64,000 nucleotides of DNA, taken from NCBI GenBank assembly GCA_014871385.1, contig CM026426.1, positions 88,472,886 through 88,536,885 of the forward strand, in the 5' to 3' direction. Numbering within the stretch: position 1 is the stretch's first letter; every line of letters begins with the position of its first letter. The position numbers and the translations under genes are program-made. This document shows, piece after piece, positions 5,779 to 56,009 of this stretch. The notes under the pieces are model-generated. The model ran no database searches. It saw only the letters and a list, made by a program, of their open reading frames with translations, and was not told the DNA's origin. This DNA is from Ceratodon purpureus (Eukaryota > Streptophyta > Bryopsida > Pseudoditrichales > Ditrichaceae).

Positions 5779-8700
5779 CTAATCTTCGAACCTAACACGT
5801 TTAGGGTTGCCCACTACACTATCAGCAGGACTGCCAGCCTCTGACTGTACTACAGGACAAACTACATTTGCATTCACTTTCGTTCCCACACTTGGCAAGT
5901 GTCCTTGGTATGAACGTTTGAGCAAAGGCCCACCTCCCCGCCTCCGATTCACTGATTCCCTGGAATAGGTTCCCCTTGGGATCTTTCGAACCTTGGAGTA
6001 CGCATGAGGTTGCAAAGGCACATCTGCGTCCTTCTCTAGCACTCTGATATCATCCGAATTTTCTGAACGTGGAGGGTCAGCTCTTACATCCGGTTCCACG
6101 TCAACATCCGTCAAAGGACGCCCTAGGCTATTGGCCATCACGTCTTCTTCGTCCTCCACCTCAACATATGGTTGAAATGGACAAACATCGTCAGCAAGTG
6201 ATACAACAATATCTCTAACGTCTTCTATAATTGCTGTCCCGCACTACGGAAAAGAGCTTCAGAAAACACCAACAGAAAAGAGGAAGAGACATTCCATAAT
6301 CCTATCTTAAATATCGGTGAAGATGTTGCTTGGCGCCCTTGAAAATCAGCTTTTCATTCATTTGAAAGTTCTCGTCGTCCTAAAATGAATGGAAAAGGAT
6401 GAGGGTTGAGCAGAAGTCATTTAGCATTTAAAATTTTAAAAAAAAAAAATAAAAAAAAAAATGAAATTATAAAAGCAAAAAAAAAAAAAAATGAAATTAG
6501 AAAAATAAAAGTAAACAAAAGGAAAAATAAATATTAAGGTTGAAAAAAAAATATGAAGGCGATTGAAAAAATAAAAGAGAAAATCAAATGAAAGAGAATT
6601 AAAGGAAAGGACTCTTTTGACCCCTTTAACAAGATAGATAGAATAATGGAAGTTAATATAAAAAATAAAAGAAATAAAAAAGTTGTAAGGCATGTAGACT
6701 ATGGTGGATGAATTCTAGCAATGTTAAGAAAATGTTACGAAATTAAATGTTACTTGATCCCTGTTCAGAGGTTCAATACCAATACATTTTAAGTAGTAAT
6801 TTGCATATAAATTTAAGGAGATAAGGGGAATTACTGTACGCCTGAACTAGTTAGAAGGAGCTGGAGCATAGTAATTGGTGTACGTTAAAAAATTAATCAC
6901 CAAGAAAAGAGAATATCAACTACAAATTCAATGAAAATACTGTAATTAGTCCACGGTTATAGGGTCAATTAAATTACTAAAATTAGTATATTTCCAAAAA
7001 TACACTAAAAATATTTGAATCTTCTAATTTTATAATTTATTTTTAGTAAAAAAAGTGCTATTTTTAGGTTCTGTCCCCCATTCTGTGCTCTCCGCTCTCC
7101 AAATCTGCGCTCACCGCTCTCCGCTCTGCGCTCTCCGCTCACGTACAAGCTACGTCCTTAGACCTACTAGGTGTAGCCTCGACGTCAGGATCAACACTAG
7201 AATTAAAAGCGGAACCCAAAGCCAAAGGTTTCAGCTGACATCTCATTTGCGCATCTTTAGATCCCTCCACGGTGGTTGAGCACTCAGGACGGACTAGAAT
7301 TTCATTTGCACATGTCTTGCAGATTCCATCGTGCCCACAAGGCTGGTTCAAGAACAACAGTTTTTGGTCAAAGGACCACAAATTATTAGTATTTAAACTT
7401 CCATGTAAACAACAAAATAATACCACAACTAACAATATTGTAAGCATTGTAAAGTCCATGATGTTACCTCTAGAGCAAACATGACAGGGTCAGCTTGGTG
7501 GCAAATGGAGCATGCAATCTTGTCTTCAGAATCTTGGGAATTGATTGCTGAAACAAGCGAACTGTTCTTCTGTCGAGCGTCCCCCTAATCTCCATCAGTA
7601 TTAGGTTGTTGTAGAGTTGGCGAAGTTGATTGTATATCGCCAGCGTGTCCTATTGGGTAGTCGGAATCCGCTGATTGGACATCTATACAAATCAGTGCAA
7701 AGCAATCCCACATCAACCACTGTCAGTGAAAGGAATACGTATTTCCATGATTTAATTAATTCCTGGAATAGGAATCTAATATAAATCACTATAAATCAAG
7801 TAAATAAGTTCCTACTACAAGTACTTATCCTTTTCGACTAGGAGATTTGACTCCTGGAAAGAAAGAGTCGTAGGAATCCTAAACCATACAGGACATACGA
7901 ACCAAAACTCTCGCAGGAAGACAAGGAAATAAAAAACATAGTAGTATTAATCTCCTGTTCCAAAAAATACTTCCAAGCACACAGGAAAAATAGCAGATAC
8001 GGAAATTATGCTCCTGTGAATACTGTAGTACCCAAGGAGACACTGCTTCTGTAAAAGGAACTGATCCCGAAGGTACTCATTTACAAAGGAAAGTCTGTGA
8101 AACATGAAATAGGAAAGGAAGAAATGGGAACAAGAGCATGGAATGATGCATTCGCCAGTACTACAGTTTCCAGGAAAGGAAGGACAAGATCATGACCTAG
8201 TACTAGTGAAAGTAATCTAGTAAGGAAAGAAAGGAACATCTAAAGTATCTAACAAATTTCAGAGTAGGTTCAGGGGGTTACCGATACTACTGGACAGGAT
8301 ACCTGTTATTATCCTTGGAAATACATCGTGATGCAAGTACTTGAAAAGAATTCAAGGAACATGGCATAAGAATCACTAGGAATTCCATTCCTTACTGTAC
8401 ATATAGTAAGTGTCCGTTCTAAACGTCCCATGCCTCGGTACAGTCAAAGAACTAACAGTAATGAATGATAGCGGAATAAAAAAAAAAAATCTTTAGGAAA
8501 ATTTTTTGATGCAAAGAAGAGGCCCTTGGTTGCAGTAGAGGAGTCTTACCAGACATTGCAGCAACGTTTGGGCTTCCAACTGCTGCATCGGTAGAAGAAG
8601 GTGGAGCCCTCTCTGGTTCCGTAAAGCCAAACGATAGTCGCCACTGCGAATCAAATTCCTCGTTGCAAAACTTAGCTATACAGGTTCTAGACTTCGAACA

Positions 8701-10111
8701 AAGTGAACTAATGCAGAAAGGATGGTAGCAGTGTCCACAGGAGGCAACAACGATGTCATTGCAGTGAAAATGTTCCCCACAAGCAGGACAGTTTTCCACG
8801 TACACTATGTTGGTTTTCTCATGATCTTTGAGCCTCTCTATTGGTGTCGGCCTGAAACTATCCAAAATACCTGCCTTGAGTCTAATAAGATACTCGGATA
8901 CAGAGACAAGAAACTTCTTCGTACAAAGCTGGATCTCAAGTAAAGAATCATATCGGTTTTGGAAAACTTGCATTCCCTCGTTACACCTCTCATAGTCTGC
9001 TACAGTAGCTTCTAATTTCAAACGTGTCTGTCTACTGTTCCTTTCCTCACAGAGAAGTTGTTGCTGCAAATCTGCGACTCTAGTTTGCAAATCCTCCTCA
9101 CTTTCCTCTAAACCAGAAGTAGATGATAGGTCTAAACCTTCACTCCCTAAGCAATTTGTCCACTAGTCGACGTACTTAGAAGACTCCTCTAATGCCAACT
9201 TGACTCGCTGAACCTCCGCCAATGCCTCGTCTGACAGACTCTGCCTATCATCCCGCATTAATTTAGCACGCCTAAGCTCTAACTCCTTATCGTCCCTCTC
9301 TTGTTCTAAAACCTTCAACCTGTCTTTCCTTGACAAGTAGTAATTTTGTTTGTCTACTAACAAGTGGTGTACCCTTGTAATAGTCTTCTCTACTGCATCA
9401 GTGATGGCAGTTTGCTCTGAAGCAGTGAGTAAACCGCTAGGAGAAACTCTGATACAACGTCTGCTAGAAGACGCAGACTCCATCCTCCCCTTCAAACCTA
9501 GAGGACGACCAACACAGGATGGCAATGGAACCGATGGACAGGGAGAAACACGAGTAGGCGGAGGTTCTCTAAAGCCCGAATGGCTTCCTATACCAACGTC
9601 AGTAGTCACGGCAGAGTTGGGCTCGGAATTTACAGGAAGTGTTCCTAATCCATTTCCTGGGACTCCTACACTGGGGACTTGGGAGACCACAGTAAAATCC
9701 GGACCAACTCTACCGTTCACTCTCTTCTGGGGAACACCGAGTTGTTGGGACCTGGCCTTTCTTGTTAATATCAAATTCCGTCGCTTGGAACTTGCAGCAA
9801 CGGCATAGGCTGCCCAGTTAACTTTGATTTTCTTTGACTCAGCAACGACACCCCTTGCGAATTCTAGAGAGATGGTGTCATTCATAGAACGAATGTCCTT
9901 TCGAAACACTCGGCGGTAAAGGTCACCAATCCACCGCTGGGACTCGGTAGTCACACAAGGAGGTAAGATCTTCCACCCATTCTTATCGAACCGTGTGCCA
10001 AGAAACTGTGTGATTTCTTCTATAGTTACAACAGTATCCAATGTCTTCACGATAAGTCCATTCCCACGGGGACCCTGCCGTTTAGTGAAGTACTCTAGGT
10101 CGTAAACAACC
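5779..10111 (-). CDS. Coiled-coil protein with RING-H2-like and RING fingers
   Basis: Probable E3-ubiquitin-ligase-like protein beside the MULE transposase. Exon 10111-8550 follows acceptor TTTGTAG; it holds an N-terminal block (EFARGVV...KVNWAAYA), a Pro/Gly-rich linker, a coiled coil, and a RING-H2-like finger at nt ~8765-8650 (CPACGEHF...SCGHCYHPFC...TCIAKFC) followed by W-R-L-S-F-G-F. An in-frame TAG at 9163-9165 splits this exon; coding continues in frame on both sides. Exon 7547-7468 and exon 7342-7147 join in phase to give a second RING (CSICHQADPV..., then PCGHDGICKTC). The last exon, 6233-5779, fits phase 1 and ends NPKRVRFED-stop. Exons above 10111 are not resolved. Its N-terminal block and first finger match the gene at 54203-56009. 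Function in ubiquitylation is inferred from the fingers only. Confidence 0.62.
6425..6690. repeat. A-rich, purine-rich tract
   Basis: The plus strand is almost entirely A with scattered G and T, including runs of about 10-15 A. It lies inside an intron or next to the last exon of the RING gene. Any reading frame through it (Phe/Ile/Tyr-rich on minus) is low complexity and not a gene. Confidence 0.8.
7074..7142. repeat. GCTCTCCGCTC minisatellite
   Basis: Five to six diverged copies of an 11-14 bp unit, GCTCTCCGCTC(T/A)(C/G), lie in tandem. The array sits immediately 3' of the RING exon ending at 7147, inside the last intron of that gene, and the surrounding sequence is AT-rich, so the array stands out by base composition. 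Confidence 0.8.
7600..8450. repeat. Intron dense in GGAA/TTCC motifs
   Basis: Between the RING exon at 7547 and the large exon ending at 8550, the intron carries more than 20 GGAA or TTCC words, often as CAGGAAA or AGGAATCCT, where about six would be expected by chance. No coding frame is supported. Short dense motifs like this resemble the transposase-binding subterminal repeats of some plant DNA transposons, but binding is inference. Confidence 0.55.
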
Positions 10112-12300
10112 TACAAAAAGGCACATTAAGCCAAGCAGTTAGCAAGAAGTATGTAATGAAAACAAATCTGTGAACATAGTAACGAAGCTGACTAAGTCAA
10201 ATATATAAACATATCAGAGAAAATGCATGATTGTTACACGTCATTTTCAGAAACACATCGACAACAGAGAATATTTAAATTATACCCAGATTCCTTCCTT
10301 CGAGATGACATTAATTTCAGTGACTCAGAATTCTAAAGACTACTGTGAGCCTTTCTAAGTGACCAGGAGTTGTAGAGAAAGGCTACTCCCTAAAACAAGT
10401 TGGCAACGCACTATACAGACCATGAAAAACACAAATTTGAATCAGTACCCAGTACTTGGCACCAAATAAAAATTCCACTTTCTCCTTCACTTGTTGTTAT
10501 TCATACAACGTGCATTGTTAAATCATTACTAAATCACTACAAAGGCTATCCAATGCAGGTATACAAGATTACGAGGGACGACAATAGTGCTAAATTCATC
10601 TACATTCTGGGACAACCTAAACCGAAAAAGAAAACAACGACAACTTCTGATACAACCCAATGCTAAATCACTATGTACTACAAGGGGATCTTTAAAATGC
10701 GGAATTGAGTCATTCCAGGCTCTCAAAAAGGAGTTCACATTTATGAAATTGACGTGTAACATGTATCCACACTGAATTCTGGATGTAACCATTTTCCTTT
10801 GATTCTTAACCTATCAGTAGTATGAAAGAAAATGGGAGGTCTAAGCAAACAAAAAAATTCAAGAACCCACTGGGTCGAAAAGGGTGAAAGCAGCAGGCAG
10901 CGACAAGAAGACAAAGAAAAGACCCATTGCTTCCGCTAGGTTTTGTGATTCGAGTTATGAACTTAGAACCCAACAAAATATCCTAAGGAAAATTCTCAAG
11001 TCAGGTACTGAAAAGCACAAACAACAGAAGCAAAAGATTACCGAATCCATTGCACATGAAACAACGCACAAAGCTTGGATATGCAACTTTGTGAATTGAA
11101 AAGATAGTGAAACATTACCTCTTTGCTGGGGCTCTAATATCGAAGGTGCTTAGAGTCGTTGCTACAAACATTGAGAGCCGTAACAAAAAGCCAGAGAATT
11201 GTGATAGAGAAGGAAAGAGCCGATGCGACACCTACGGCAAAGGGGAGCAAGCCAAACAATGAAGCACAGCTTGAAACCCTAGACATGCCTGAACCGTTTC
11301 CCAAGGATAAAGTTGAGACTTCCTGGTTTCCTAGGTCCTGGACCAATAGAAAAATTGCATTTTATTGTTACGTTTTTATCACCAGTACCCCCAATTTCCT
11401 TGGTTCCTTGGTTCCTAGTGGGCCACCTCAAGGATGCTTGCCCCCACTGTCATTGGACTCGGAGGGAAAGGCACATTCCACACTCGCCCAATACCCCCAA
11501 GGTACGTTTGTGTTAATCTGGAAAGAGTTTCAAAAAACATTCTTCTCATGATTCCTGTAGAGGAAGCCAAACAGGAGACGCTTAAGGACGCGATCAAGTC
11601 AAGTGTGCTGTGGTTTGAGGGACTCACGTACTTGGAGCAATGACACACGTGTGTTCTATTCATTCTGTCCAAAGAGGAGTAGTATCAACTTTGGTGTGTT
11701 CAGCATAAACTTAGAATAGGAAGGATTTTTATCAATACAGAAGTTACGATTATACAAAGTATCATGCTTAGACCTATGGAGATGAATATTTCCGTGTAAG
11801 CATTGGACAATCGTCAATGCTATTCTCCAATAATATGATCAGATCAGCCGTTTGTTTCGGAAATGTTTCACCCTACAAACCGACTCAGTGTGATGACACG
11901 TGGTTGGATACATTTTTTTTTAATAACGAGATGATATTAAGGAGATTTAAATCTGAAAAAAAAACAGAGCGCATCTTGACAGCACGCGTCAGTTCCCTAT
12001 TTGAAACAGGTTGTCACGAAGAATGCGGAAAAAAATGACACGGGTTTCGGAGACACTGACATATGTCTTTGTCGGAACCATTGCTGGCAAAGTTGGCAAA
12101 AAAAAGGTAATCGGAAATCAGCAGGTGGTATGCTTTTATTTTCGCAGAAAGACATTCTCAGAGTTCTAAATTGACATACATTTTGATGCGAACCCTTTAA
12201 TTCTTCGTACCAGTTGAAGTCCCATTGGGTTACGAAGATCGTTCAATGTTCTACCCACGAGGAGGGGCGAACACTCAGTCCACCCGGGTATCCAATATTC
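10112..12300. other. No recognised gene; weak coding-like fragments
   Basis: This may hold 5' exons and promoter of the minus-strand RING gene. Two plus-strand open stretches look mildly protein-like, 10884-11099 (Lys-rich) and 11434-11643 (ending in VEEAKQETLKDAI...), but neither matches a family I know, and neither has convincing splice sites. The rest is AT-rich spacer. Confidence 0.35.
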
Positions 12301-12319
12301 AACTGCAGTGAATTGGTCC

Positions 12320-12430
12320 GAAATGACTCAGTTACAGGAATGACCCGTCCATAATGACCCTACTGCCTTAAGTCATTTTTTGAGCCCACTATCCAGAATG
12401 ACTCTGTTCTAGGTCATTTTTCTCGTCATA
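12320..12430. repeat. GTCAT/ATGAC motif cluster before piggyBac
   Basis: Six to seven copies of (A)ATGAC or its complement GTCATT occur in about 110 bp (GAATGACTC, GAATGACCC, TAATGACCC, AAGTCATTT, GAATGACTC, GGTCATTT), in both orientations. The cluster lies just upstream of the piggyBac coding remnant, where subterminal transposase-binding repeats would be expected. A TTAA-flanked end was not identified with confidence. Confidence 0.5.
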
Positions 12431-12477
12431 AAAGACAGGATTCCTACTAGTGTAGTGACAGGGAGTGGTTCCCCAAG

Positions 12478-14186
12478 TTTAAGGACACACTAGAGTCTTC
12501 TAAAGGCGAATTGGACGTGGACTGCGAGGATGGTCACGACGACGAGGACTTCGACACCCGGGGCTTGGAGGATTGGTGCATGCATCCTGAGGCTTTCAAG
12601 CTAGTGCCAATGGGGATGGCAGAGTTGGCAAGGCATTACCGGCGAGCATTGTCGAGTTCAGCAAGCGTAGACTACTTAGGATCTCGGAATAACTTCACTA
12701 GGCCTGAGCTTGGACTGAAGAGCAAGACGGCCAAGGGAGTGCCACAGTCATGGCGAGTATTCAACCAATATTGGAGTGACATCACGGTAGATTGCATTGC
12801 CAGGGAGACAAACAGGTATGCAAGGACGACAGTAAGGGGTACATGGGATAGTTCAGAGAGGATGAAGGATGGGCGTGCTTAGAAAGACGTGGACGGCTGT
12901 CAGATTCGGGCGTGGCTAGGGATATGCATCCTTATGGGGTGCAAGAGGTTACCAAGCGTGAAGCACTACTCGATGGTAGGTGAACCATTCATCTACTGGC
13001 AATTGATTAGCCATGTGATGAGTCTAAGGAGATTGCAGCAGATTTTGGGGTGTCTGCACCTTGTCGACAACGAGGAGCTGGTTTGGGATACGAAGTCTCC
13101 CCACTTCCATAAGATTGCGAAAACGCTCTGGCTGGTGGATAAATTTGTGGAGGTTTCAGAGTCCATCTACAACCTGGAGAGGGAGATCACGGTCGATGAG
13201 TGCGCATCCCGTACGAGGGGAAGTATTGTTTTATCAGGCAATTCATGCCTCATAAGCCAATACAGTTTGGCATCAAATGTTGGCTCCAAGCTAGCTCAAA
13301 AAGACGCTTAGTTTGGAGGATAGAGGTGTATTTTGGGGAGGGTACAGGGCTCGGTGAGCATGGTTTGAGATATCACGTAGTTTAACGCATGGTAGAAGGC
13401 CTAGAGGGAAGAGGTCATTGTCTCGTTGTGGACAATCTATTTGCTAGCGTTAACCTATTTCATGATTTCATGACGAAGGGGATCTTGGCGACAAGGACTG
13501 TCAGAAAGAATTCGAAGAACCTTCCACGTGGTTTGTATCGAAAACCGGATTCAAAAGAGGAGCAAGGGTTGATGCTCATCCAAACTCATGTCCACCGCCA
13601 GATGGGCGTACTATCTTGGAAAGATGCGAAATTGGTCACAACTCTGAGTACTGCAGCTTCCCCTTGGACACCGGACGTCTCTGTTCTGCGACATGAGAAA
13701 GGTTGAAGGGAGCAGCTGATCGTGCCTTCGTCGCCCATGCACACACAATATGTCGAATACATGTGTGGGGTCAACGTGACCGACGAGCTGAGGGCGAGCT
13801 ACTCCTGTCAGCTACGCTGCCACAAGTGGTGGCTTATATTTTTTCGCTTCATTGTTGACGAGAGCCAGGTCAATGCCTATGTGACCTGGATAAGTGAAAT
13901 GGAGGAAGTCGGACTCCGTGCCAAGCCGCACTTGGCGTTTAAAATTGCAGTTGGTAGACACCTCGTGGAACTCGCCATCCAAGCGAGGGAGAAAGTCCAA
14001 GGACCTCCTCTGCGCAGATACCGCCGCCTTCCTCCTACGCATGCCCACTTCACGTCGCACTTGCGGCGGCATTGTGTTGTTTGCGGGTACTTGCAACATT
14101 GGCACTACCTCGCATGCGGACCTAAGTGGATGTACAGGGAGACCTGCTACCTTGCCCACCACAAGTCAGTGAACAGGGCTCTTTGA
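12478..14186 (+). pseudogene. piggyBac transposase, decayed
   Basis: Remnant of a piggyBac (PGBD-type) transposase spread over several frames. Readable parts in order: an acidic N-terminus (12511-12882) ending in TAG; the DDE_Tnp_1_7-type core starting IRAWLGICILMGCKRLPS (12900-13300) with the first catalytic Asp in TVDEC (~13192); a frame change into a block with FIRQFMPHKPIQFGIK (13200-13385); GRGHCLVVDNLF with the second Asp (~13428); GVNVTDE (~13770) at the third site; and the terminal Cys/His cluster CVVCGYLQHWHYLACG (~14068-14120). Families normally have GVDxxDQ at the third site, so the catalytic Asp appears replaced by Asn. At least four frame breaks or stops are present. The order of motifs makes the identification strong. 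Confidence 0.85.
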
Positions 14187-24027: not shown

Positions 24028-25229
24028 CAACTACATGCAGTACGATATGCTACACAACTAGGTGACTAGTTTCACATAACTCTCAACGTTCCCAAGTAAG
24101 CCCAGCATCTAACATAACTACCTTGACAAATCCCCTAACCCCTACAAATCTAAATCTCTAATGCAGCAAAGCCCAACACTCGAAACGTTAAATACACAAG
24201 CCTGCCTCAACGTTCACTCAGAGTCACTCGGGACTCAGGTCCAATATGGAACATGCCATTTGGTCATTTCGAATCAAACTGGCCACACCCATGGAGCTTC
24301 CATCCAACAGCCACATCCTTGGAAATTAACTCAGACCTAAACATGGACTACAACATTACACAACATCCATTAACAAAGATCACCACACAACCAGAAGCCT
24401 GTCTTAAGACACCATATGTATAAAATGGGGACCTGAGATTCCTCTCGGGTCACCCTTCATCCGCATTGATCCACGTCAACACACTCTCTTCCATACCTAA
24501 AACATCGCCTCACCATGTCAATCAAACCCTCTGTCAATCGTGGATGCTTTCAATTACTAACGTGGCATCTTCCTATCTCTTTTGTGACACTCGTACACCT
24601 GCCTGGCTTACACCGGCACAGCTCACATCTCAATACCGGACCCTCTTCTTCCTGCTTTCCAATTCACTGTCCTCCTGCACAAACCCACGCCAGCCAACAA
24701 CTTAAACAACGTACCTCTCAATCCTTCACCCTCTTCCCTCCAAACAACCACCACTACTGCCTGCCACCTTCCACTCAACAAAACACTATCCAACCACGTA
24801 TGAACCATGTAATCTCAACCACACAAAACTGTTGCCATCAAACACACAAAGCACCACATCCATTCCAAACCACAACAAATATCACCAGCCTCTACATTAA
24901 TCAACTCCTTCGCGACTACGCTACCTTGCTCTCCAAAGAATCAAAATTGTCGAGTAACGGCATAGCACTGTCGTCTCCCCCTCCCCCGTCTGCCTCCATC
25001 CGAACACTATCTGCTGCCATCAACTCTGGTTGCACCTGCAAACCACACGAACCACCCATTCAGAATCCATCCCCGCCAAAAAAACTGCAATCTAATCCCC
25101 ATTTCAATACTCCACAAATTCCCTTCTCCAGCACACTCCCCATCCCACAAATACTACCCCTAACAACGTACTCCACATTGCCATCCCTGCACATCCGCCA
25201 CCGCCTCTAACTCATTTCGCTTCACTTAC
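24028..25229. other. C-rich, G-poor 3' flank of the PCFS4-like gene
   Basis: The plus strand is strongly depleted in G, so long frames stay open by chance. The last exon and 3' UTR of the minus-strand PCFS4-like gene should lie here, after the donor at 25230, but I could not place the acceptor. Confidence 0.45.
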
Positions 25230-28200
25230 CTCCTCGCTGTCCTCGCTCAGAGCTGCCGTCGCTGCCGATTCCGTCTGGCACTTTGCATGCACGATCGGCC
25301 CCAGAGCCGCACTATCCAGCCCCTCGTAAGAACCGCTCGCTGTAACATTCATATACACTGCACCCCTGTACATCCACTCATCCTTCTCGTCGCTGTAGAA
25401 GTCATCGAATGGTTCTCCACACAATGCGCACACGCTCTGATTATAGTCCGCCGGTACCGCCACATTCTCTCCCTCGTCCTCGTCCACCTTCGGCACCGCT
25501 GTCCCCACCTCTACAGCGAAAAAGCTCGGTGCCGACTCCGTCATCGACGCCCCTGTCCCACTCAGCCAGTTCTTCTCGCTCACGAACCACTTCCGAGACA
25601 CCTTCTTCTGTGGTTTCTGCCGCCGGTTCCGAGACACGTGCCAATCCATGTGCTTGCTGTGCGCCTCTTGCTCCAGAAACCGAAGCCCGCACGTCTTGCA
25701 CTGCCGCGGATAATCGCAGTACAGCGCATCTAACACCACCTCGTGCCTCTCCTTCAAGATCTCCGGTTTGAACTCCATCTCAATTGGATCGTCCTTCACC
25801 ACCACAAACTGCCTACTTCTGCCCCCGCCATCCGTCCCCGTATTCTCTGCCACAGGACCCACGGACGGCACCAGAGTCGTCGAGAACGATAACGTCTGAA
25901 CACTCGCCGCCTGAAGCGCGCCTGGGTTGAAGGAAGTCGAACTCGCATTCACAGCATTCGTACCTTCTCCCACATTCATGCCCACCGCTTGAATGCTCGT
26001 CGTAGCTGTCGCACCGGACACTGATATCAATCCTTGCGCCATCAGTGACTTGAACAGAGTGTCGTACTGGGTGATCACCGGTGCCCCAGAAACAGAATTC
26101 CCTGTCAAAACGGATGCTGGGGGCGGACCGGGAGGAAGAGGCGGCGGATTCACTCGAGCCTGCTGCTGACTTAGGTGACCCATTGGACCCATCACCATCT
26201 GTCCCTGCGCTGTCGCGTACTGCCCTCCCTGTTGTATCACCGGCTTATACACTCCCGTCTGCAAAAATGTTGGGGAGGGCCCATTCTGCAGCGGTGGTAC
26301 GCCCAAACCAGACTGCAACATCTGACCAGCCGTCACACTCTGGGACTGGCTCTGTTGTTGCTGTTGAATCTTATTCTGGGAACCTGGCAACTGCTGGACC
26401 AACTTCAACAGCTCAGAAATAACCGCAGGGCTCAGAGGTAGCACATCAGATTGCCCATTCGACACACCAGACACCGCTCCTGTAGGCTGCTGGAACTGAG
26501 TTTGTTGACCTTGCAATGGTGGCATTGCGCCTTGCGACTGTTGCAAGAATGCGTTGAGCGCATCTCCTGAACTTGGCTGTCCCGTCTGTTGAGACATTGG
26601 GGCAATTGGAACGGTCGCAGTACTTGCGTGCTGAATCAGCGAGAATATAGGCAACTGGGATACCAAGGCTGAAGGCACTTGGGGTATAGAGATCGAAGGT
26701 ACGACCTCACGCGACGAATGCGTCTGCTCATCTTGAATTTGCTGCTGTACCAATGGAAAGGTCACGTTACCCAGCGTCATCTGTGTATCGGTCATCGGCT
26801 GGAAGAATGTGGCAGGTGTCACGGGAGAGGAAATGGTATAAGCCGGAAATAGCCCTGAGCTTGTGGGATGACTTTGATGGACTCCATACTGAGAGCTTCC
26901 TGCACCCACGGACGAAATTGGAGGCGTCGTCGGCTGTGTTAACACATTCGTCGAAGCAAGTGACATACTGAATTTTGGAAAATTCACCTGTAAAGCAGAA
27001 GTATAGGTTATGAAAGGCCAATCTCCTATAACAACTCGAACAAGAACTTACTCGAACTATTCGTTTGGGTAATTTAATCCAATGTGTTCGTCTGGACTTC
27101 AAGCTAATCGTACAAAATGGGCGTGAGATGCTTGGAACAACATGACACTCCTTCGTAATAACGTCATCCACAAGTACCTGCAGTGCAGGGAACCTCGACT
27201 CTGTAGAATGCATGACCTCCATGTCCGGGTATAGCGTCACACGAGAACTGTAGCCTGGTTGGGAATCAGCGAGTCGACAGCGCTCCTCAGACACCTGCGA
27301 ACGAATCATATTCAACGACTTAGATATGTTGTCAAAAGAGATGTGCCATTAGCTGGTCAAGCTTCAAAGTGAATCCTGCTCAAAAGGAGAGCATTCATCT
27401 CACGCTACTTACGGATCGAACAAAAGGGAAAAGCATTCTATAAGACAAATAGGCACTCAACGTGCCCACACGCAGATTCTCGACAGAAAACCAATAATGC
27501 ACAACATTTTGAGAGACAGCACCGAAAGAAGGATCCCTACTCTGCGAAGAGCTGCCCGCATTCCTGCAGGTCCCAAGAACTGTTCCGACTCAGTAACGCT
27601 CCCACCTCTCCGCCACTCCTCCAACCCTCCCGCTAGCTCCATCCCAGGCCTCCCAGAACTGCCTCCTCTTCCCATGTCTCTGTCCCGGTCATACCATTCC
27701 TCCACCTTACCATCCCCAAGCCTCTCCTCCGGACCCCACCCTTTCGGTCTTAGGTCCTCCCTCACATGTTCCTCATCATCCTCGTTCTTCCTCTCTCCCA
27801 CCCCGCCTCCTTCGTCCCGCGCCAACCCCAACCCTCGACCACCTCCTCCTAACCCCGCACTATCAGCCCTTACAGCACGGTTGTCCAGCCCCGAACCCCG
27901 GACAACACCTCCTATTCCACAACTATCTGAACCTAAGCCCCGACCCTCCGGCCCCATGCAACGGCTGTCCATCGTCCCACATCTCTCTCCAATCTCCCGC
28001 CCAGGGATTCGACTCTCCACCCTGAGGTCCCATGCTTCTCCGCCTTCCGATCCTGCCCCTATCCTCTGTGCCCCAATTCGGTCCGGCCCCTCCACAATTC
28101 GAGGGTCCATTCTCCGCCCCCGCACCTCGCCCCTTCCTCTGAAGTCGGGATCCACCAACTGCGACACGGAAAAGGCACCCCCTCTTCCTGGCCCAGAAGA

Positions 28201-45870: not shown

Positions 45871-45879
45871 TCCGAGGAG

Positions 45880-46689: not shown

Positions 46690-46785
46690 TTAGTATGTGC
46701 AGTGTGTACACGGTGTGAGTACATGCAGTTGTACATGCAAAGAGTACACTAAGTTTCCACGTACAGTGAGTACATTCTCTGGTAA
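46690..46785. repeat. GTAC-rich island 1
   Basis: Six GTAC tetramers in about 90 bp, mostly as (A/T)GTACA(T/C), upstream of the transposase at 47025. Part of a pattern repeated at 48480-48940, 50420-50780 and 53440-54160. Confidence 0.6.
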
Positions 46786-47024
46786 CGGATAATCAAGATC
46801 CTATTTTCTAGGGGCGCCGAGTCTAAGATGCCGCCGCCACTAGCAACCCCTTGGCCTCCACGTTGGCGCCGCCCTGGATTCCCTCTTCTTCTTAGCCTAG
46901 TCGTTGTGCTCTGCTGTATTCTGTGTCTACTCGGTGTCGCTTGGAATTCAACTACAGTTTGTGCATGGCTCTTGTTTTGTTTCCTTGCTAGAATATGCGA
47001 TTTACAGAACTGTTCGCTGTACAA

Positions 47025-50000
47025 TGTCTAAGTCCAGGCAGCAGTCCCTCTTTGTCCAAAAACTGATTACTTCGCACTTCCCTGCAAAAGGGTTCCCTCC
47101 GGGATTGCTCTCCGCTAGTACCGAGATAGACTCCCTCCTATACACAGTGGATAGCGAGACTAGTGACTCTTGTTACAATTCTGAAACCCCGGTCTCTAAA
47201 CAAGGGAACCCTAACTATTATCTAGGCAAATGCAACACCGTATCTGAAGAGTCCCCGAGGCGTGCACTATTTGCAACCGCAGGTAGTGTAGATTCCTATA
47301 GTAGCTACTAGTACCTGCCTTCTCTATCTGACGTACAATTTTCCATAGGTTCCCCCACTAGTAGCAGCGAGTCCATTGCATTTAGGTGGTGACAGGCAAC
47401 TACAGTTTGGTAAGTTCTTTTACATTTTCATGTGGATGCATTCAAATTGTTTCATTTTCATCGCCTCATTGATTGTACTTCGCTCATTGCTATAATCTGC
47501 ACTCTCTATGTACTAATCATTTTTATGTGTTACCAGGTTCAGGGTGTCAGTTATGGGGAATAATGCAAAGAGGCAACGAGTGCGAGGGGGTGTTAGTCGG
47601 CCTGGTCCTGCAGCCAGGGCTGCTCCAGACAGGATGGAGGAAGAGCAGAGAGCTGTGTCTGGAGAGACGGCTAGAGCACGCAAGGCTCTACAAAGAGGAC
47701 GTGAGGGAGAGAGAGAGGAGGAAACACGAGAACTTGCTTCAGACCCTTTACATGATGACACACATGATCAGATGTCAGTGAGGGAGTTGAATCGGATCTC
47801 TTTGCGACTAGTGAAGTATATTGTTGGAGAGTTGAGGAGTTGTCCCGGTCCTTCTAGTAGAAGAGATGTTGTCGAGAGGGTCATGAGGCACAATGCTTTT
47901 TGGCCTCTATTACCGCTATATTATCCTAGGCCTCAAGAGGCAAAGGTCACCTACAGTTTCATAGAGAACCTTAAGAATGAACTGCAGTTGTGAAGGTGGC
48001 AAACTCAAATGAGCGATTAGCAAGAAAGAGTGTTTTATTAGATGCGGCAGTAAGCTTGGGAGTCGATGGAGTGTCAGCATTGTCAGGTGTATTGGATACT
48101 TCTACGTCTAGCATCAATATAGCCATGAATAGAAGACTATATGGGTTGAGTCCTGAAGAGATAGTGCCTCGGCTTCGCCTCAATCGACAGAAGAGAGGAG
48201 GCTTGTCAGATTACGTCAGACTCCAGATTGAGATATGGTGGAACGGGCAAACCAAGGTTTCGCCAAACAAAAAGGACGTTGTTAAACACAGGGTAGGACG
48301 AAATCTGTGGGTGGAGCCTCATCCTACGCACTACCTTTGCGAGACACAGGTAAGACCTTCCACTGAACATACATGTTGTACATTCATTGTTTACCTCTTC
48401 TGCATTTTCAACCATAGTAAACAAGGTCGTCAGTACCATCCCAATATATAGAGCAATTTGTACTTGATTTCCTACCAACCTACGGTCGAATGTATTACCG
48501 TGGGCAATAAGTACTGCTACTATACAGAGTGGTATCACTTGGTTTAGGAGTTGTGTATATCAGATACTTTGCTTTTTGTTGTTTGGTACTGATTTGGGAC
48601 TCCTTACTTGTACTTATGTAGTTGACAATGTACGTAAGTGATATTTGTGTTAAGTCCTCTATACTGGAGATGTACAACTAAGATTAAATGTATGAACGCC
48701 AAGATACTTTTTGTATATTTTGTATTCACCAAGTGTAGGAGTCGTCTATACTCCATACATTTGGTTATTGTGTTCGAAATACCGTTGTATTTCTTATACT
48801 GGATGTAAACACAAACACAAAGATAGTGTACTTAATATAATCCTTTGTATAACTTGTACTTGATTTCAAAACATATTGTACCTAGGTTTATTACTTTTAA
48901 TACAACAAGTATAACACTTTTGGAAAATGTATTCGTGGTTGACAGACAACATTCTTTTTGCGCTTTATGGAGGCTCATCCAGAGTGCAACGTGCGACAGA
49001 GAGCCTTTGAGAGGTTGAAACCATGGTGGGTTCGGAAATTGAAGGAACGAAATACCTGCTGTTGTATATACCACGTAGAGATGGACTTCATGAAGGTTGG
49101 ATTGAGCCATCTCAGAGATCAACTAAGGGGGTTGCATTCAAGGATCATGTGCAACTGCCGATGTCAAGTATGTAAGGGTGAGGCTGAAGGGGCTTGCCAT
49201 GCACAAGAGGCAATTTATAAGCGCATTACAATGATGTGGTAATCTTGTGTGTGCCCGAAAGGAGAACTGGATGTGTGGCACAAGCTTGATTGTCTCATGG
49301 GAGAGTGTTCAGATTGTGGCTTCCATTTATTTCCCCTTTGCCCTTTCGAGTTGTCTAGTACTGACTCCTTTCTTGTGAAGTGGAAGTGTTTCGAATACTA
49401 TGAGGTTGGCGTTGATAAGAGGACTGGAAAGCCCAAGAAGCGGCTCAGAGAGGCTTTCAGGGATACTCCTGTGAAAGAATTTTTGTCATACATGGAGAAA
49501 ACATTGTCGACGTTCATCACCCACAACTTTCGAGCAAGGTGGCAGGATGAGCAAAGTCAATTAATGATGAAGAACGTCTCGGAGGGAGTAATTGTTTCTC
49601 ATATCGATTTTGCAGAAAATTATAGCTTTGCTATTCAGAATGAAGTGCAAAGTTTGTACTATTTTAGCACGTCCGTAACCATCCTTGTCCACATTACAAT
49701 GTTGAAAGAAGGGGATACCGTAATGAAGCAGACGCACTTTTACATATCTGATGACAAAGATCACGACTCTGCTACAGTCCAACATTGCTTGCTTTTGCAT
49801 TGGGATTGGCTAGAGGACTCAGGATTTATTCCTGAGGAACACTGGGTGTATAGTGATGGTTGTAGCGCTCAGTTTAAATGTGCAACAGCTATGTACTTTG
49901 TGGCTAGATATCCCATGCTCACCAAGGGATGCAAGATGCGGTGGAACTATTTCGAGACTGCTCATGGGAAGGGAGAGTGGGACGGAGCCAGGGCGGTCGT

Positions 50001-50421
50001 GAAGAGGGCGTTGAGTGCTGAGCAAATCCAGAATCCTCTGAGGCCATTGGCGAATGCTGCACAAGTTGTCGACTTTCTACAAGAGAAGTACACTGAGCGG
50101 GTTCAGAGTTCCTACAGGCGGACAAAGATCAGCACGGCTCCACCCCTCTCCCGTGTATTTTGGCACATTTGAAAGAAGGAGGTCGTCCATAGTGACAGGA
50201 GCATCCGCTGCAACACTTTGCCAGGATCTAAATCTCTCTATTCCATCATGGGCTTCTCTGAATCTGACCCTACTCTTCTTAGGACACGTGCTTTATCTTG
50301 TTTCTGTATATCATGCGTTGATGGCGATTGGGCTAATTGCTTGAACTCGTCTCATGTGCAGGGCTGGAATGTTGCTAGGCTAGTTCCGGAGAGCGCTTCT
50401 TTAATACTTTATGTATTTTAA
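47025..50421 (+). pseudogene. DDE-type transposase, FAENY/HGKGEWDG family
   Basis: Transposase-like gene of a family widespread in animals and non-seed plants; I cannot name its superfamily. A possible first exon is 47025-47311 (MSKSRQQSLF). The main exon begins after ACCAG at about 47537 and ends at CAG|GTAAGA, 48349; the next starts at 48946 after GACAG, in phase 0. Motifs: LDAAVSLGVDGVSALS, then SPNKKDVVKHRVGR, then a Cys/His-rich block (NTCCCIYHVEM, CNCRCQVC), the catalytic part with HIDFAENYSF, VYSDGCSAQFK and FETAHGKGEWDG, and a C-terminal Cys-rich tail (LSCFCISCVDGDW). Interruptions: a one-base frameshift near 47990, TAA at 49240-49242, and TGA near 50170 with coding continuing to 50421. 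Convergent with the SET/RING gene on minus, about 350 bp away. Confidence 0.82.
48350..48945 (+). other. Intron of transposase, GTAC-rich island 2
   Basis: The 596-base intron has donor CAG|GTAAGACC and acceptor TTGACAG, and joins coding in phase 0. Its second half has about seven GTAC words and many ATACT words in 460 bases. Confidence 0.6.
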
Positions 50422-50780
50422 TGTAAATTGGAATGTATAATATGTACTTTGTAGTATTTGAATGGCTCCTTCTGATATTATAAGTACTCTTTGAATACTA
50501 TTTGTATTAATTTTTTAATTCACTGTGAGCATTTATTCTTTAAGTGGATTTGTATTTCAGAACTTCAGTCCTTTGTTAGACAAAAACGCAACTTCGATAG
50601 ATCTTTGCAGTCAATTACTGTAAGTACTTCAATGAAGCACTTAGTGTTTACAATTAATTAGTCGCAAGATTAATGTCACTTAGTATTTAGAAAAACTCTT
50701 TTACTCTGATCTACGAGATACGACAAAGGTACTACGCGAGTCCCTACATTAGGTACTCCCACACTTGCATGCAAAGGAAG
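50422..50780. repeat. GTAC-rich island 3, between convergent genes
   Basis: Space between the 3' ends of the transposase and the SET gene. Five GTAC words in about 360 bases, as AGTACT(T/C) or GGTACT. Confidence 0.5.
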
Positions 50781-53325
50781 GCAAATCAGAGTCTTTGTAG
50801 CTAAAGTCGCAGCCATAGTCCCAAGTTAACTCTTCATGAATCTATATGTCTCGATTTGTGAAGAATGCAACATGGTAAATGCTCTTGTCCCATTCGTCAA
50901 TCTGCACTGGAACTTCGATCAAGTTGGCATCTTCACACCTAAAGAAACACACAATTTCATTAGACATTATTAAACAAGTTCGAACAATTACAGTAATGCA
51001 TATCAGCCGGCTGGATTACAAACTTATGGTTTACAAATCTTGCCACGTTACCAAAGATTTGGGAATCCAAGCTGAGCGCAGAGTTGTCATCAAGTTTGGC
51101 TTCAGTGGCCCAATCAGCATCTAATTGCATTGCAAAAGATGGTCCAGGTGGGGCTACAAGATTTCTAAGAATCATCTCAGAATTTGTGAGAATCTCCCCA
51201 GCCAACTCAAAGAGAAACACACCTTTAGGAATGGGTCTACTCGCCCTCATCCTCCATCCAGTCTGGCCCGTATGGAAAATCTCTACTGGATACTTCATCC
51301 CCTGTTGAACAACACGATTACCACATTCATTGTGGCAGCCACACCTAACACTACATTCTCTAATGAACCTGCGTGATCGACGATTACCGCACAAGGCACT
51401 AAGCCTCCTCTCCACATAAATCACTGAGCCACCATGTGAATAGAGTTTTTTTTTCCTCTTACAACCAAGGGAGTTGTTGCCACCGTGGTGAAGGCACCGA
51501 TCCTTGAGAATGCCACCCTCCTTATAGGCTATCTCTCCACCTGACTCCTTTCCACATTCACAAGGCTGCAAAGATTTTAAACAATCCCGAGTCCCACAAT
51601 TACAACACTTCCCAAGCTTCAGAGAGAAAAGGCTCAAATTCAGAGAGGCCTTCCTATGAACCCTGCTGTTGGACATGTACCGGAATGGCGACATATATGC
51701 ATAGAGATTAGAGACTGGAATAAGAAGAGCCTCCATCCCCCTTGACAAATCTCCAAGATCAAACCAAGGCATAGCCTGGTACGGGTCCCTGTCCCAAAAA
51801 AAAGCCAAAAAACAGTCAAGGGGCAAGAAATTTACAATTACATAATAACGACAAGTTTTCCACCATAACTCTGAACAGACAGTACATACATACACCCGCA
51901 TGCACGACAAAGCTCAAAGCCGCACCAGAAATACAGAATTGAACAATAATAGAAAAGGGAGTGAATACCCCCGGCTCCTTTTTCAGCAGCCTCGTTGCAA
52001 GATAGGAGATACATCACAGTGGCTACATTCCGTAGCCACATACAGAATCTACTTTTTTACAGACTTCTTCCTCTTCTTTACCTGTGAAACCGCCTGTAGC
52101 TTCTCTTGCAACCTTGTCATAACTCTACCTAGTCCAGCCGGAGACTTTACCAGGGCTTGAGGACAATCACTGTCATCCTTAGAATCTTCCCCAACCTCTA
52201 CAACACCCTGCTGAAAACCCTGCCTCGCTGCCAAATCCGTGAGCTCTAAGAGAGTGGTGGTCTTTGCACTGTATAGATTCTTCATTGAAGTGGGAAACTC
52301 TTCTTCCTCCTTCTCTGGTTCCATCTTCTTCTTCCTCTTCTTTGATCCACTTGTGTTGCTCTTCTTCTGCATTACCCTCTCAGCATGCCCCACCTGTACA
52401 TCTTCCTCATCCTGTAGCTTGTCTTCCTCTTTCGTACGCGATTTCTGTTCTCCGACCTTGTCAACCTCCGGGCCTACCTCCTCCATGTTTGGCACATCTC
52501 TAATCTTCTTCTTCTCACCCTTAATCTTTTTCTTTGCAGGTGACTTCTCCGATGTCTTCGACACTGTCTTCTCTGGTGTTCTGAAGATCTCCTCCTCCAG
52601 TGCTTCTAGTATTAGCTCTCCGGCCCCAACAGTTCTTGTCACTTCAGTCTTCCTTGTATTGCGCCTCTCCAAACACTTGGAACCAGGAACCTCCACTGAT
52701 GCTGTCGTCTTCGACCGGTCCTCCTCTACAGCAATCGTCACCGTTGTTGGAGCTACAGTCTCTTCGATCGGAGCCACAACATGCTCATTTCCAGCAATCT
52801 TCACCCTCAGCGGCTCCTGTGGGCTTATAAACAGTGGGTCATAGGACTTTAGAGTAGGCATACTCCGACCATCCTCTTCTTCCTCGTCTTCCTCCTCTGA
52901 ATCTTCACGCTCCTTGGAATCCACAGATTTCTCACCTTTAGAGTCCTCTTCCTCCTCACCTGAGTCAGTAGTTCCAGAAGAGGACGGCAGCTTCAAATTT
53001 TGCGTTTCCCGTTCGTCATCGATGGATGACTCATCTTCACTGAGCAGATCAGGCTCAGTCCCTTTACCTCGCACCGCACCCTTCACCAAACATTCAAAGA
53101 CGACCTCATCCACCTATTGCAGCTTGTTTCTCTTAGTTTTCTTATTGTTAACCCTTCCCTTGCGGGTCACGTCCTTCACGGTGCGTTGCAAAGGGTTTAG
53201 CAACGCAGCAGGGGAGAGTCCAGGGCCACCCGCAAGATAGCTTGTTGCTTGGCTCGCGTCACCCTCAGTAAAATGGCCTGGTGAATACCTTGAAGTAGGG
53301 GGAGCGATTTTCTGATACGATAGGC
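50730..53325 (-). pseudogene. SUVR4-like SET-domain protein with acidic N-terminus
   Basis: Histone-lysine methyltransferase of the plant SUVR1/2/4 group by sequence. Exon 53113-52082 (acceptor AATAG, donor CAG|GTAAAG) codes a Glu/Ser/Lys-rich acidic region with basic patches. Exon 51788-51024 holds pre-SET cysteines (CNCGTRDC, CECG, FIRECSVRCGCHNECGNRVVQ) and SET (GWRMRASRPIPKGVFLFELAGEI, LDADW, SQIFGNVARFVNH). The next exon starts at 50938 and joins in phase to give NHKCEDANLIEVPVQI, then FFTNRDI. There TAG at 50844-50842 stops the frame before the ELTWDYG block that carries the catalytic Tyr; a second stop (near 50753) splits the post-SET CKCGST.CRD. An upstream exon at 53325 fits the phase of the RING-like exon ending 54203, so both may form one gene. 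The frame at the 51788 acceptor is off by one, another sign of decay or mis-set boundary. Confidence 0.75.
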
Positions 53326-53415
53326 CTGAAGTCTCACAGAAAATATCATTGTTAATTAATAATTCGAACCACATCTTAAAACAGACAGTACTTCTATGAC
53401 ATGACAACGTACAAC

Positions 53416-53435
53416 GGGGGGTGGGGGGGGGGGGG
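53416..53435. repeat. G tract, quadruplex-capable
   Basis: Six G, T, then thirteen G on the plus strand, in the long intron upstream of the SET-gene exons. On the transcribed (minus-sense) RNA this reads as C. Confidence 0.85.
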
Positions 53436-53439
53436 TGCA

Positions 53440-54165
53440 GACAATAGTACTAATAATACTAACAAGTCATACTGCATGCACCCAGGAACAATACCATAAG
53501 TACATATGCAAAAATAAGTCTTACCTCATAGTATACAATGCGTACAAAAGTAGAGTGTTTGTAACCCGAGTATAAGATGCACGTGGAGTACATGAAGAAA
53601 AGTACCTAAGCATTAGTCAACTTATATAACAAGTACTCTATTGTCCTCGTATGTACTTCCAATACATGAACCAGATATATCAATTACTCTAAAATACTCT
53701 TACACACTTCCAATACATTCAGCATAGTTAGTTCTAAGTACACTTAATGTACAAAACGACTTCTAATATCACATTGTATACTACGACTTCTGATGAGGTA
53801 GGGAGTCAATGTACAGTGAAATACATAACCTTTAACCTAGTCAGTATGTGGAGAACTATAACTGTACTAGAAGTATATTGCATTGAAATTACAGTGTCCA
53901 TTCAGCTCACACATTAGTACTCTAGACACTGTGAATACGTAACAGTGGCAGTGGACAACACAAATCACGTTGACGAATGTGCTTCTTAGTACTCTAGAGT
54001 AGCACGTACTTTACATGTAGTGCCAAACACCGTTTACAAACTATACAATCTACAAAAATGTATAGTTAGCACACCCTTAAACTACAAAACGAAGACCTAA
54101 CGTACTTACGGTATACTCTGATTCACTCATAAGAGGCTAAACCATATTTCTAGGTACTAACGAAT
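53440..54165. repeat. GTAC-rich island 4, intron
   Basis: I count about 16 GTAC words in roughly 730 bases, against about three expected; typical forms are AGTACTCTA and (A/T)GTACTTCC. It forms the intron between the RING-like exon ending 54203 and the exon starting 53325. No coding frame. Confidence 0.65.
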
Positions 54166-54202
54166 TAGCAGGAACATATAGATTCCAGACTTGAAAACTT
54201 AC

Positions 54203-56009
54203 CCGCATTTGGACAAGTTGCTTTTGCTCTCTCCATCCTCAGTTGCAAGGTTTTCCTTTGCTCCTCAGCACATCCAAGCATCTCGGCCCTCTGAAGCATC
54301 TCAGCACTAGGCTCTCCCCACCCAAAACTCTTATGCCAATCCGGATGTGATAAAATATCGCACCCCTTAGCAGTACATGTACCTCCATGCACAAAAACAA
54401 CCGATGCACAATAGGGATGATACAAGTGCATACAAGATGATACAATAATGTCACTGTTAGGAAACGGAAACTGACACAGAGAACAAGAAGAAATCTCCAG
54501 AAATCCGGATGGATCTAAACTCTGTGCATCCTTCTCCTCCGAGTAAGCCATGGGCCGTGGCCAAAATGACCCCAAGATCTTTCCATTCTGCAGCTCGAAC
54601 AACTCCGCCTTCAACGCCTTATACTGTAAACGATGCGCCTCAATTCCATGTGCCATGTTGGCCACAGCTGACTCTGCCGATTCCAAATCTGCCCTTAAAA
54701 CAAGAAGCCGAGTCTGCTCATCCGATAATTGCTCCATTATGAGCTCCATCTTGATTTTCTCCCGATCAACGTCACGTCCTTCATTGAGCATGGCATCGAT
54801 CTTCAACCCCTTCTCCACATTCTGGTGTTGGTAGCTCTCCAAGACACATTCCGACTGCTCCCCCTTTACCTTACACCTATCCCGCCTCTGAAGTGCCTCC
54901 TTCTCTCGCACTCTGCCCGCCTCCATCTCCACAGTCAGTATTGTTACCAACTCCTATACCTCCCTACCCCTCTCCTTCACTGATTCTGCGCATAAATTCA
55001 AGTGCATACAATGCAACAAACAAATACTTAGGTTAGAAAAATTGATAGATCAACAATATTTCTACAATGTCGACAGATCCATTTATCACACAATTATTTG
55101 AGCAGACTATTAGAAGCAGGAAAGGACGTATCAGCTCAAACGTAGAAGGGAAGGATTCAGCTTACCTTGAGTCCAACATCCTCCTCTCCGTGCATACTCT
55201 ATACCACCTTCGACATCGACCCCCGACCCCATGCCAGATTCGTAAAGACCTCCGCTTTCACCCAGCCTCGACTTCGTCCTCCCTTCCTCTCCAGTCCTAA
55301 CCCCTGAACTCCATGGTGGACTTTCCCCACGAATCCCTGGTTCCACCTTTATTTTCGCCCACTCTCTACCACGAACCTCTAGAGGTTTATCTCCCTCAAT
55401 GGTCTTCCTCAACGCCATCAACTTTTGGACAGATTGCTCGTACCGGTTCACCTGCCTCTTGTTAGTGTCAGCCCCAAAGGCACACCAATCCACCTTCCCT
55501 TTCCCCTCATCAAACTCAATCGCAACGCCCTCAGCGAAATGGATCTTCAGGTATGGAGGGATCTCACATGGTGGATGTTGGTAGAGAATCGGGTGAAGAT
55601 ATTGAATCCTCTTCACCACCCCCGCCTCTTTGCACCCTGCCCACGCGTAGCCTTGGCGTCCACCAACGCCATATGGCTCTCCAAACAACTCCTTCAGTAG
55701 AGCAGGAGACACCCTTCCTTTCCGGAAACGATGTGGGTTGTCTCCATCGCTCGCAAGGGTCGGGTACTCCCTCTTGAAATCCTCCCGTGTCAATGCTCGC
55801 GGTGGCGGCCGCAACCTCCCAATCTCCAAGTCCACCTGGTTGGTACGCTCTATCTTCAGTTTTATGGTCTTCTTCACCCCGGAACGACTTCGATTCACGC
55901 TCAGGTCCTCAAAGATATCATTGTCCTCCCCTGGCCCCCCTTGTGCACTCTGTCGCGACTTCCTCCCACTATGAGTGCTACCCGAACGCCGTCCAGCAGA
56001 CCCCTCCAT
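54203..56009 (-). CDS. Coiled-coil RING-H2-like protein, paralogue of left gene
   Basis: Second member of the accessory family. ATG at 56009 (MEGSAGRRSG). Exon 56009-55166 ends at CTCAAG|GTAAGC; exon 54953-54203 follows GGTATAG and ends at GCGG|GTAAGT. Exon 1 has a basic/Ser N-terminus and the conserved block HFAEGVA...KVDWCAFGADTNKR, matching EFARGVV...KVNWAAYAVAASSKR of the left gene. Exon 2 has a coiled coil (heptad-like Glu/Leu/Lys) and the finger CSLCQFPFPNSDIIVSSC, then MHLYHPYC, TCTAKGC and W-H-K-S-F-G-W-G-E-P. The spacing and residues match the left gene's finger. It is open without stops. The phase-1 donor at 54203 fits an exon at 53325 leading towards the SET domain. Substrate and cellular place are unknown; a ubiquitin-ligase-like role is inferred from the RING-H2 pattern. 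Confidence 0.68.

What the first reader, a model, noticed from the sequence alone, without database searches (positions are those of the whole stretch)
5779..56009. Same RING accessory family beside two unrelated transposases
The minus-strand genes at 5779-10111 and 54203-56009 share an N-terminal block (EFARGVV..KVNWAAYA versus HFAEGVA..KVDWCAFG), a coiled coil, and a finger with matching spacing: C-x2-C, D-I-(V/I)-V-x-S-C-x-H-x-Y-H-P-x-C, T-C-x-A-K-x-C, W-x2-S-F-G-x-x-E-P. Each lies tail-to-tail with a transposase of a different superfamily. That points to a transposon accessory protein, possibly a ubiquitin ligase that counters host silencing or controls transposase level, exchanged between element types. 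I know of no description of it. The paralogy is seen in the sequence; the role is inference.
Basis: partly seen in the sequence, partly recalled or inferred. Interest (0 to 1): 0.88.

Follow-up and report, generated by a model that had tools for sequence, protein, structure and literature searches.

The report
Two related RING-like genes near transposases
Two related, damaged zinc-finger genes lie in a transposon-rich stretch of a eukaryotic genome, one of them end-to-end with a likely transposase; they are probably transposon helper genes of a kind already glimpsed in other elements, but the evidence here cannot prove it.

Summary
The paralogy is real. The C-terminal fingers of the two minus-strand genes align beyond generic RING residues (blastp E 3e-16; 0 of 2000 shuffles with Cys and His masked). 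The N-terminal block is only suggestive (33 of 1000 shuffles reach its score). Both read as multi-exon genes with GT-AG introns and fitting phases; each has two internal TAG codons.
"Each tail-to-tail with a transposase" holds for gene 1 only (253 bp from a transposase-like gene with a SWIM-like motif). Gene 2 ends at 52049, and an H3K9-type SET gene lies between it and the second transposase-like gene. No enclosing terminal repeats or target duplications were found. In this window 76% of random placements fall within 10 kb of a transposase, so proximity alone is weak. No eukaryote genome collection was available; the genome-wide test was not run.
Precedents: a MULE with a RING ORF, MULEs with SET or antisense ORFs, TET/JBP genes shared among transposon superfamilies. 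Best reading: a transposon accessory family, about 0.6. Ligase and anti-silencing roles are inference.

The parts
5779..10110 (-). RING gene 1; exons 10110-8550, 7682-7468, 7342-7154, 6243-5779; 810 codons including the stop, start exon not found; internal TAG at 9163-9165 and 7585-7587
   Evidence: GT-AG introns, phases fit
8614..8790 (-). shared finger of gene 1 (C-x2-C, C-x-H-x2-H-x2-C, C-x4-C, then W-x2-SFG-x2-EP)
   Evidence: Pfam zf-RING_2 E 0.066, below cut-off
7154..7512 (-). second finger of gene 1, C3HC4-like, split by an intron 7467-7343
   Evidence: (zf-C3HC4_3, E 4.8e-6, just under cut-off)
9814..9861 (-). N-terminal block of gene 1 (FARGVV...KVNW)
   Evidence: weak similarity to gene 2
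52049..56009 (-). RING gene 2; exons 56009-55166, 54985-54203, 53325-52049; 968 codons including the stop; internal TAG at 54954-54956 and 53114-53116
54309..54485 (-). shared finger of gene 2
   Evidence: (zf-RING_2 E 0.00032, below cut-off)
55485..55538 (-). N-terminal block of gene 2 (FAEGVA...KVDW)
1793..5525 (+). transposase-like gene T1 (one intron between about 3928 and 4008, by eye); SWIM-like C-x-C...C-x-H near the C-terminus; internal TAG 3512-3514; ends 253 bp from gene 1
   Evidence: (SWIM E 0.12, sub-threshold); the label Mutator-like is recalled/inferred
47517..50172 (+). transposase-like gene T2; no Pfam hit and no significant PDB match; D...D spacing read by eye; internal TAA 49240-49242
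50749..51913 (-). H3K9-type Pre-SET/SET gene lying between T2 and RING gene 2; internal TAG 50842-50844
   Evidence: Pre-SET 5e-10, SET 2.1e-6; best chain 6z2a, H3K9-specific methyltransferase, E 2.2e-17; Clr4 1mvh 6.6e-17

Best explanation
The two genes belong to one divergent family of RING-like accessory proteins that travel with DNA transposons. In the clearest case (gene 1) the accessory gene sits tail-to-tail with the transposase gene, as in two-gene elements such as MuDR (convergence of mudrA and mudrB is recalled). The likely protein is nuclear: an N-terminal block, a coiled coil for self-association, one or two zinc fingers and a basic C-terminus. Inferred mechanism: the finger(s) bring ubiquitin-type (or similar) modification to host silencing factors or to the transposase, tuning element activity. 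Shown: homology, gene anatomy, the second finger of gene 1, the arrangement of gene 1, and nonsense codons in both RING genes as in the neighbouring transposase-like genes. Inferred: that the genes lie inside elements, ligase activity, target, nuclear location.
For: Finger homology. Gene 1 ends 253 bp from T1 and is convergent with it; 4% of random placements in the window are that close. Both RING genes carry nonsense codons (2 and 2), like T1 (1), T2 (1), T3 (2), the SET gene (1) and the piggyBac copy (2), while the 611-codon exon of a host-type PCFS4/Pcf11-like gene has none; this fits mobile genes decaying after insertion. A C3HC4-like second finger in gene 1. Precedents: a RING ORF in a Ghost MULE, antisense extra ORFs and SET in MULEs; one accessory family shared by many superfamilies.
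Against: No TIR or TSD enclosing T1+gene 1 or T2+gene 2 was found, within the limits. Gene 2 is not adjacent to a transposase. Only two family members were seen, and 76% of random placements lie within 10 kb of a transposase here. The other two DNA-transposase loci (piggyBac and T3) have no family member of their own in the window (T3 runs to the window edge). The shared finger departs from the RING consensus (last pair C-x4-C) and scores below Pfam cut-offs. Decayed host paralogues would carry nonsense codons too.
Confidence: 0.58

Rival explanations
1. A lineage-expanded host RING-like gene family, some copies now pseudogenes, that happens to lie in transposon-rich DNA.
For: Host-style multi-exon structure. 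76% of random placements in this window are within 10 kb of a transposase and 26% within 1.9 kb, the distance of gene 2. No element ends found. Gene 2's nearest neighbour is a chromatin-type SET gene.
Against: The 253 bp convergent fit of gene 1 with T1; nonsense codons in both copies; only 28% identity (45 of 163) between two copies about 44 kb apart.
Confidence: 0.27
2. Only gene 1 is a transposon accessory gene (of a MuDR-like element). Gene 2 is a paralogue that arrived otherwise, for example captured together with the SET gene, so there was no exchange between superfamilies.
For: Gene 1 abuts T1. Gene 2 abuts a SET gene, not T2. MULEs tend to acquire host gene fragments (start of the abstract of PMC6446971, listing) and one group carries SET.
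Against: Gene 2 keeps three exons with fitting phases over 4 kb, more than a small captured fragment (inference).
Confidence: 0.11
3. The internal TAG codons are read as an amino acid in this organism, so the genes are intact.
For: 8 of 11 internal stops tallied by hand in likely coding frames are TAG, among them all 4 in the RING genes; the two RING frames have no frameshift.
Against: Codon usage predicts 46-48% TAG among new nonsense codons; P(8 or more of 11) is 0.07-0.09 (the codon table includes one misframed segment; P for 5 of 5 TAG in the RING genes and T1 is 0.02, a subset picked after the fact). T1 and both RING genes also seem to end at TAG; T3 and piggyBac hold internal TGA, T2 an internal TAA. 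A codon-usage scan did not single out TAG (TGA 4, TAG 3 at its loosest threshold, same misframed segment in training).
Confidence: 0.04

Closest known systems
MuDR of maize (mudrA/mudrB) and VANDAL/Hiun (vanA/B/C), Mutator-like elements with extra ORFs
   Same: A transposase gene with a separate accessory gene; for MuDR convergent (recalled). Some MULE groups carry antisense extra ORFs such as PMD (PMC6446971 Table 1).
   Different: mudrB is reported only from Zea, its product of unknown function (PMC3276141 passages) or apparently needed for integration (PMC6446971 passage); VANC is anti-silencing. None is described as RING in what I saw. No TIR/TSD found here.
Ghost MULE (black cherry aphid)
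   Same: A 420 bp ORF with a RING finger beside a truncated MULE transposase; TIRs and TSDs not identified (PMC6446971 section 5).
   Different: Animal element, much smaller ORF; no sequence comparison made here. The paper's Table 1 lists SWIM, not RING, for the group.
Transposon-borne TET/JBP dioxygenases of fungi
   Different: Different enzyme and hosts; shown there across many transposon lineages, here two loci without ends.
RING of RAG1 / Chapaev transposases; VTD deubiquitinases of Helitrons
   Same: Transposon-related proteins that touch the ubiquitin system (PMC4411706 passages; PMC9741609 passages).
   Different: Those domains are in the transposase or in the Helitron ORF itself; here the finger is on a separate convergent gene.
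Phytophthora MULE group with SET
   Same: SET reported for 14 members of one MULE group (PMC6446971 Table 1), as with the SET gene beside gene 2.
   Different: Whether the SET gene here belongs to an element is unknown.

Membership tests
RING-type E3 ubiquitin ligase | eight zinc ligands ending in C-x2-C, scoring as RING | tested here: not met
   Shared finger ends in C-x4-C in both genes; zf-RING_2 21.3 bits (gene 2) and 13.9 (gene 1) against a cut-off of 27.3. So RING-like, not filed as canonical RING.
RING-type E3 ubiquitin ligase | second, canonical C3HC4 finger (gene 1) | tested here: inconclusive
   zf-C3HC4_3 26.7 bits, cut-off 27, E 4.8e-6; profile positions 3-39 of 49 matched, so the last ligand pair is not covered.
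RING-type E3 ubiquitin ligase | E2 binding and ubiquitin transfer | not testable with these tools
   needs biochemistry; the structure model of the finger was poor (mean pLDDT 41.1)
Mutator-like element (MULE) | MULE DDE transposase with SWIM | tested here: inconclusive
   No MULE profile hit; SWIM 12.4 bits against 19.6; SWIM-like motif CTC...CKH near the C-terminus
Mutator-like element (MULE) | TIRs with 8-11 bp target duplications around T1 + gene 1 | tested here: not met
   No candidate beyond the range of shuffles (best 10 of 20 matched, shuffle maxima up to 14) and no blastn match below E 0.6; TIR-less MULEs are described in PMC6446971, so this lowers membership only
Two-gene element of MuDR type | second gene convergent with and next to the transposase gene | tested here: met
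   Gene 1 and T1, 253 bp apart, opposite strands, tail to tail. Not met for gene 2 and T2.
Accessory family shared between transposon superfamilies | same accessory family inside bounded elements of different superfamilies | tested here: inconclusive
   Two loci, no ends, superfamilies not assigned; no genome held for the window and no relative in the collections scanned

The most novel reading that the evidence does not exclude
A two-finger RING accessory family is passed between unrelated DNA transposons of one eukaryotic lineage, in one case together with an H3K9 methyltransferase gene, as a kit with which elements act on host chromatin or on ubiquitin control of silencing.
Probability: 0.17. 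Interest if true: 0.75.

Novelty: new variant of a known kind. Interest (0 to 1): 0.42.

Why it matters
If confirmed, it would add a ubiquitin-type route to the known ways in which DNA transposons of eukaryotes act on their hosts (VANC, TET/JBP, deubiquitinating domains of Helitrons; Ulp-like proteases are recalled), and would show again that such helper genes move between unrelated elements. As it stands it is a good lead with close precedents.

Tried and rejected
Variant nuclear code (TAG or TAA as glutamine) was considered because most internal stops are TAG; not supported. The tally of 11 (8 TAG, 1 TAA, 2 TGA) was made by hand: gene 1 two, gene 2 two, T1 one, T2 one, T3 two, SET one, piggyBac two (12880, 13704). 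Left out: a TAG at 23073 between two frames of about 150 codons of unknown nature, the SET row (misframed by me, 13 stops; its codons stayed in the usage table) and the piggyBac stops at 12448, 13309, 13321, 13366 and 14184 outside the parts hit by Pfam.

TIR/TSD searches: one search lists only the 25 longest of 163 and of 275 inverted pairs; (blastn, minus strand, at most 12 rows per region pair) gave no match better than E 0.6 for T1+gene 1 and 1.6 for T2+gene 2, and its best among the region pairs, E 0.012 (47625-47645 with 51266-51246), pairs T2 sequence with SET coding sequence; one search tested exact 8-11 bp duplications with 20 nt ungapped ends in bounded regions, against 100 shuffles of the left side. 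The blastn part returned nothing under a scoring scheme that I believe is unsupported, and was repeated. The 68 nt intron tried over the TAG at 9163 does not keep the frame; other introns there were not enumerated.

Relatives: scans of viral contigs with the finger protein, the finger alignment, T1 and T2, of genome contigs with the finger alignment and tblastn of gene 2's finger ORF against phages gave none. Structure predictions of the finger and of T2 were too poor to use (mean pLDDT 41.1 and 36.8), so no fold search was made. PDB searches gave only weak matches (best E 0.3 and 0.096), among them generic RING and coiled-coil chains, for the finger and none below E 0.12 for T2. In one search, 7,099 of 20,000 random placements that overlapped one of the four DNA-transposase loci were left out and 12,901 counted; strand was not considered.

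Papers: PMC6446971 sections 5 and 6 read whole, plus passages ([quoted passage not shown] PMC3276141, PMC9741609, PMC4411706, PMC13359780 passages only; PMC12730594 abstract and outline only; others as search listings, which show 20 of 491, 12 of 77, 15 of 49, 15 of 382, 1 of 1, 1 of 1 and 12 of 71 papers, open-access only.
Full report
WHAT IS THERE. The two minus-strand genes read as multi-exon genes. Gene 1: exons 10110-8550, 7682-7468, 7342-7154, 6243-5779. Gene 2: exons 56009-55166, 54985-54203, 53325-52049. The junctions are GT-AG, phases fit and both coding lengths are multiples of three. Each holds two internal TAG codons and no frameshift. The start exon of gene 1 was not found; the first exon seen begins right after an acceptor-like TAG. 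Exon joins are my reading; there are no transcripts.

PARALOGY. The stretch from the coiled coil through the finger aligns at 28% identity (45 of 163) with E 3e-16, and E 8e-14 when searched against the whole window. With all Cys and His masked, 0 of 2000 shuffles reach the score, so the match is more than RING ligands. Coiled coil and linker alone are not significant (105 of 2000). The N-terminal block scores above most shuffles but not all: 33 of 1000 reach it for the whole ORFs, 1 of 2000 for a stretch picked by eye. Since it lies in the same order as the finger I accept it as probable.

THE FINGERS. The shared finger is C-x2-C ... C-x-H-x2-H-x2-C ... C-x4-C, followed by W-x2-SFG-x2-EP. The last pair is C-x4-C, not the C-x2-C of RING (consensus recalled), and Pfam RING models stay below cut-off. 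Gene 1 has a second finger split by an intron; joined, it reaches 26.7 bits against a cut-off of 27 for zf-C3HC4_3, over profile positions 3-39 of 49. A six-frame scan of the window for a C-x-H...[CH]-x2-[CH] core gave three hits, all in these two genes. Gene 2 shows no second finger by that scan.

SURROUNDINGS. T1 (1793-5525, +) has a SWIM-like motif near its C-terminus (sub-threshold in Pfam; motif) and ends 253 bp from gene 1. T2 (47517-50172, +) has no Pfam hit at E up to 10 for its main part and no significant PDB match; I call it transposase-like from the D spacing and general look, which is recall. T1 and T2 are not alike (best blastp E 0.29). Between T2 and gene 2 lies an H3K9-type Pre-SET/SET gene. 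Other elements: a piggyBac copy (12.4-14.2 kb, DDE_Tnp_1_7 E 7e-19 and 7e-14 for two parts), a third transposase-like gene T3 at 61.3-64 kb (by eye; no Pfam hit above cut-off) and retrotransposon-like frames at 35-43 kb (by eye). A PCFS4/Pcf11-like host gene lies at 25.2-27.0 kb (zf_PCFS4 E 3.8e-29). No TIR or TSD enclosing the pairs was found, within the limits. A null in the same window: of 12,901 random placements that avoid the four DNA-transposase loci, 76% fall within 10 kb of one, 26% within 1.9 kb (gene 2's distance) and 4% within 254 bp (gene 1's distance). So only gene 1's position carries weight.

DECAY. Internal stops occur in T1 (1), T2 (1), T3 (2), the SET gene (1), the piggyBac copy (2) and the RING genes (4): 8 TAG, 1 TAA, 2 TGA, tallied by hand. 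The excess of TAG is weak (P 0.07-0.09). The 611-codon exon of the PCFS4-like gene has none. The RING genes thus look like decaying mobile genes, though decaying host paralogues would look the same.

WHAT COULD NOT BE TESTED. No genome is held for the window, and none of the collections that I could scan is of eukaryote genomes. Scans of viral contigs, genome contigs and phages found no relative.

COMPARISON. Extra ORFs in Mutator-like elements are known: mudrB, vanB/vanC, MutB, PMD often antisense, SET in a Phytophthora group, and a RING ORF in an aphid Ghost element (PMC6446971). One accessory family in many transposon lineages is known for TET/JBP in fungi (PMC12730594 abstract). RING or ubiquitin-related domains in transposon proteins are known from RAG1/Chapaev (PMC4411706 passages; it stated in 2015 that RING was in no other known transposable elements) and Helitron VTDs (PMC9741609 passages). 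The finding would be a new variant of a known kind.

MECHANISM. Most likely a nuclear accessory protein whose finger(s) bring ubiquitin-type modification to a silencing factor or to the transposase. Homology, anatomy and the position of gene 1 are shown; everything about activity, location in the cell and target is inference.

VERDICT. Observation partly confirmed, interpretation partly supported, interest moderate.

Noticed in passing
window 50749-51913 (-): An H3K9-type Pre-SET/SET gene (best solved match an H3K9-specific methyltransferase chain, E 2.2e-17) with one internal TAG sits between a transposase-like gene and RING gene 2; SET is reported in one MULE group.
   Followed up: partly
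window 3512, 7585, 9163, 12880, 50842, 53114, 54954, 63213: Internal stops in likely coding frames are mostly TAG (8 of 11 by hand tally); the excess over codon-usage expectation is weak (P about 0.08). Standard code with decayed copies is the simpler reading.
   Followed up: partly
window 12358-14186 (+): A decayed piggyBac copy (DDE_Tnp_1_7 E 7e-19 and 7e-14 for two parts); its C-terminal part weakly hits the PCFS4 zinc finger model (E 0.0044, below cut-off), the same model that the host gene at 25 kb hits strongly.
   Followed up: no
window 61302-63998 (-): A third transposase-like gene (by eye; no Pfam hit above cut-off) with internal TAG and TGA, running to the window edge.
   Followed up: no
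window 25212-27047 (-): A PCFS4/Pcf11-like host gene (zf_PCFS4 E 3.8e-29), a 611-codon exon without internal stops.
   Followed up: partly
window 10232-10253 and 10740-10761: A 22 nt inverted pair, 91% complementary, 486 nt apart, just upstream of the known part of RING gene 1: possibly a small MITE.
   Followed up: no
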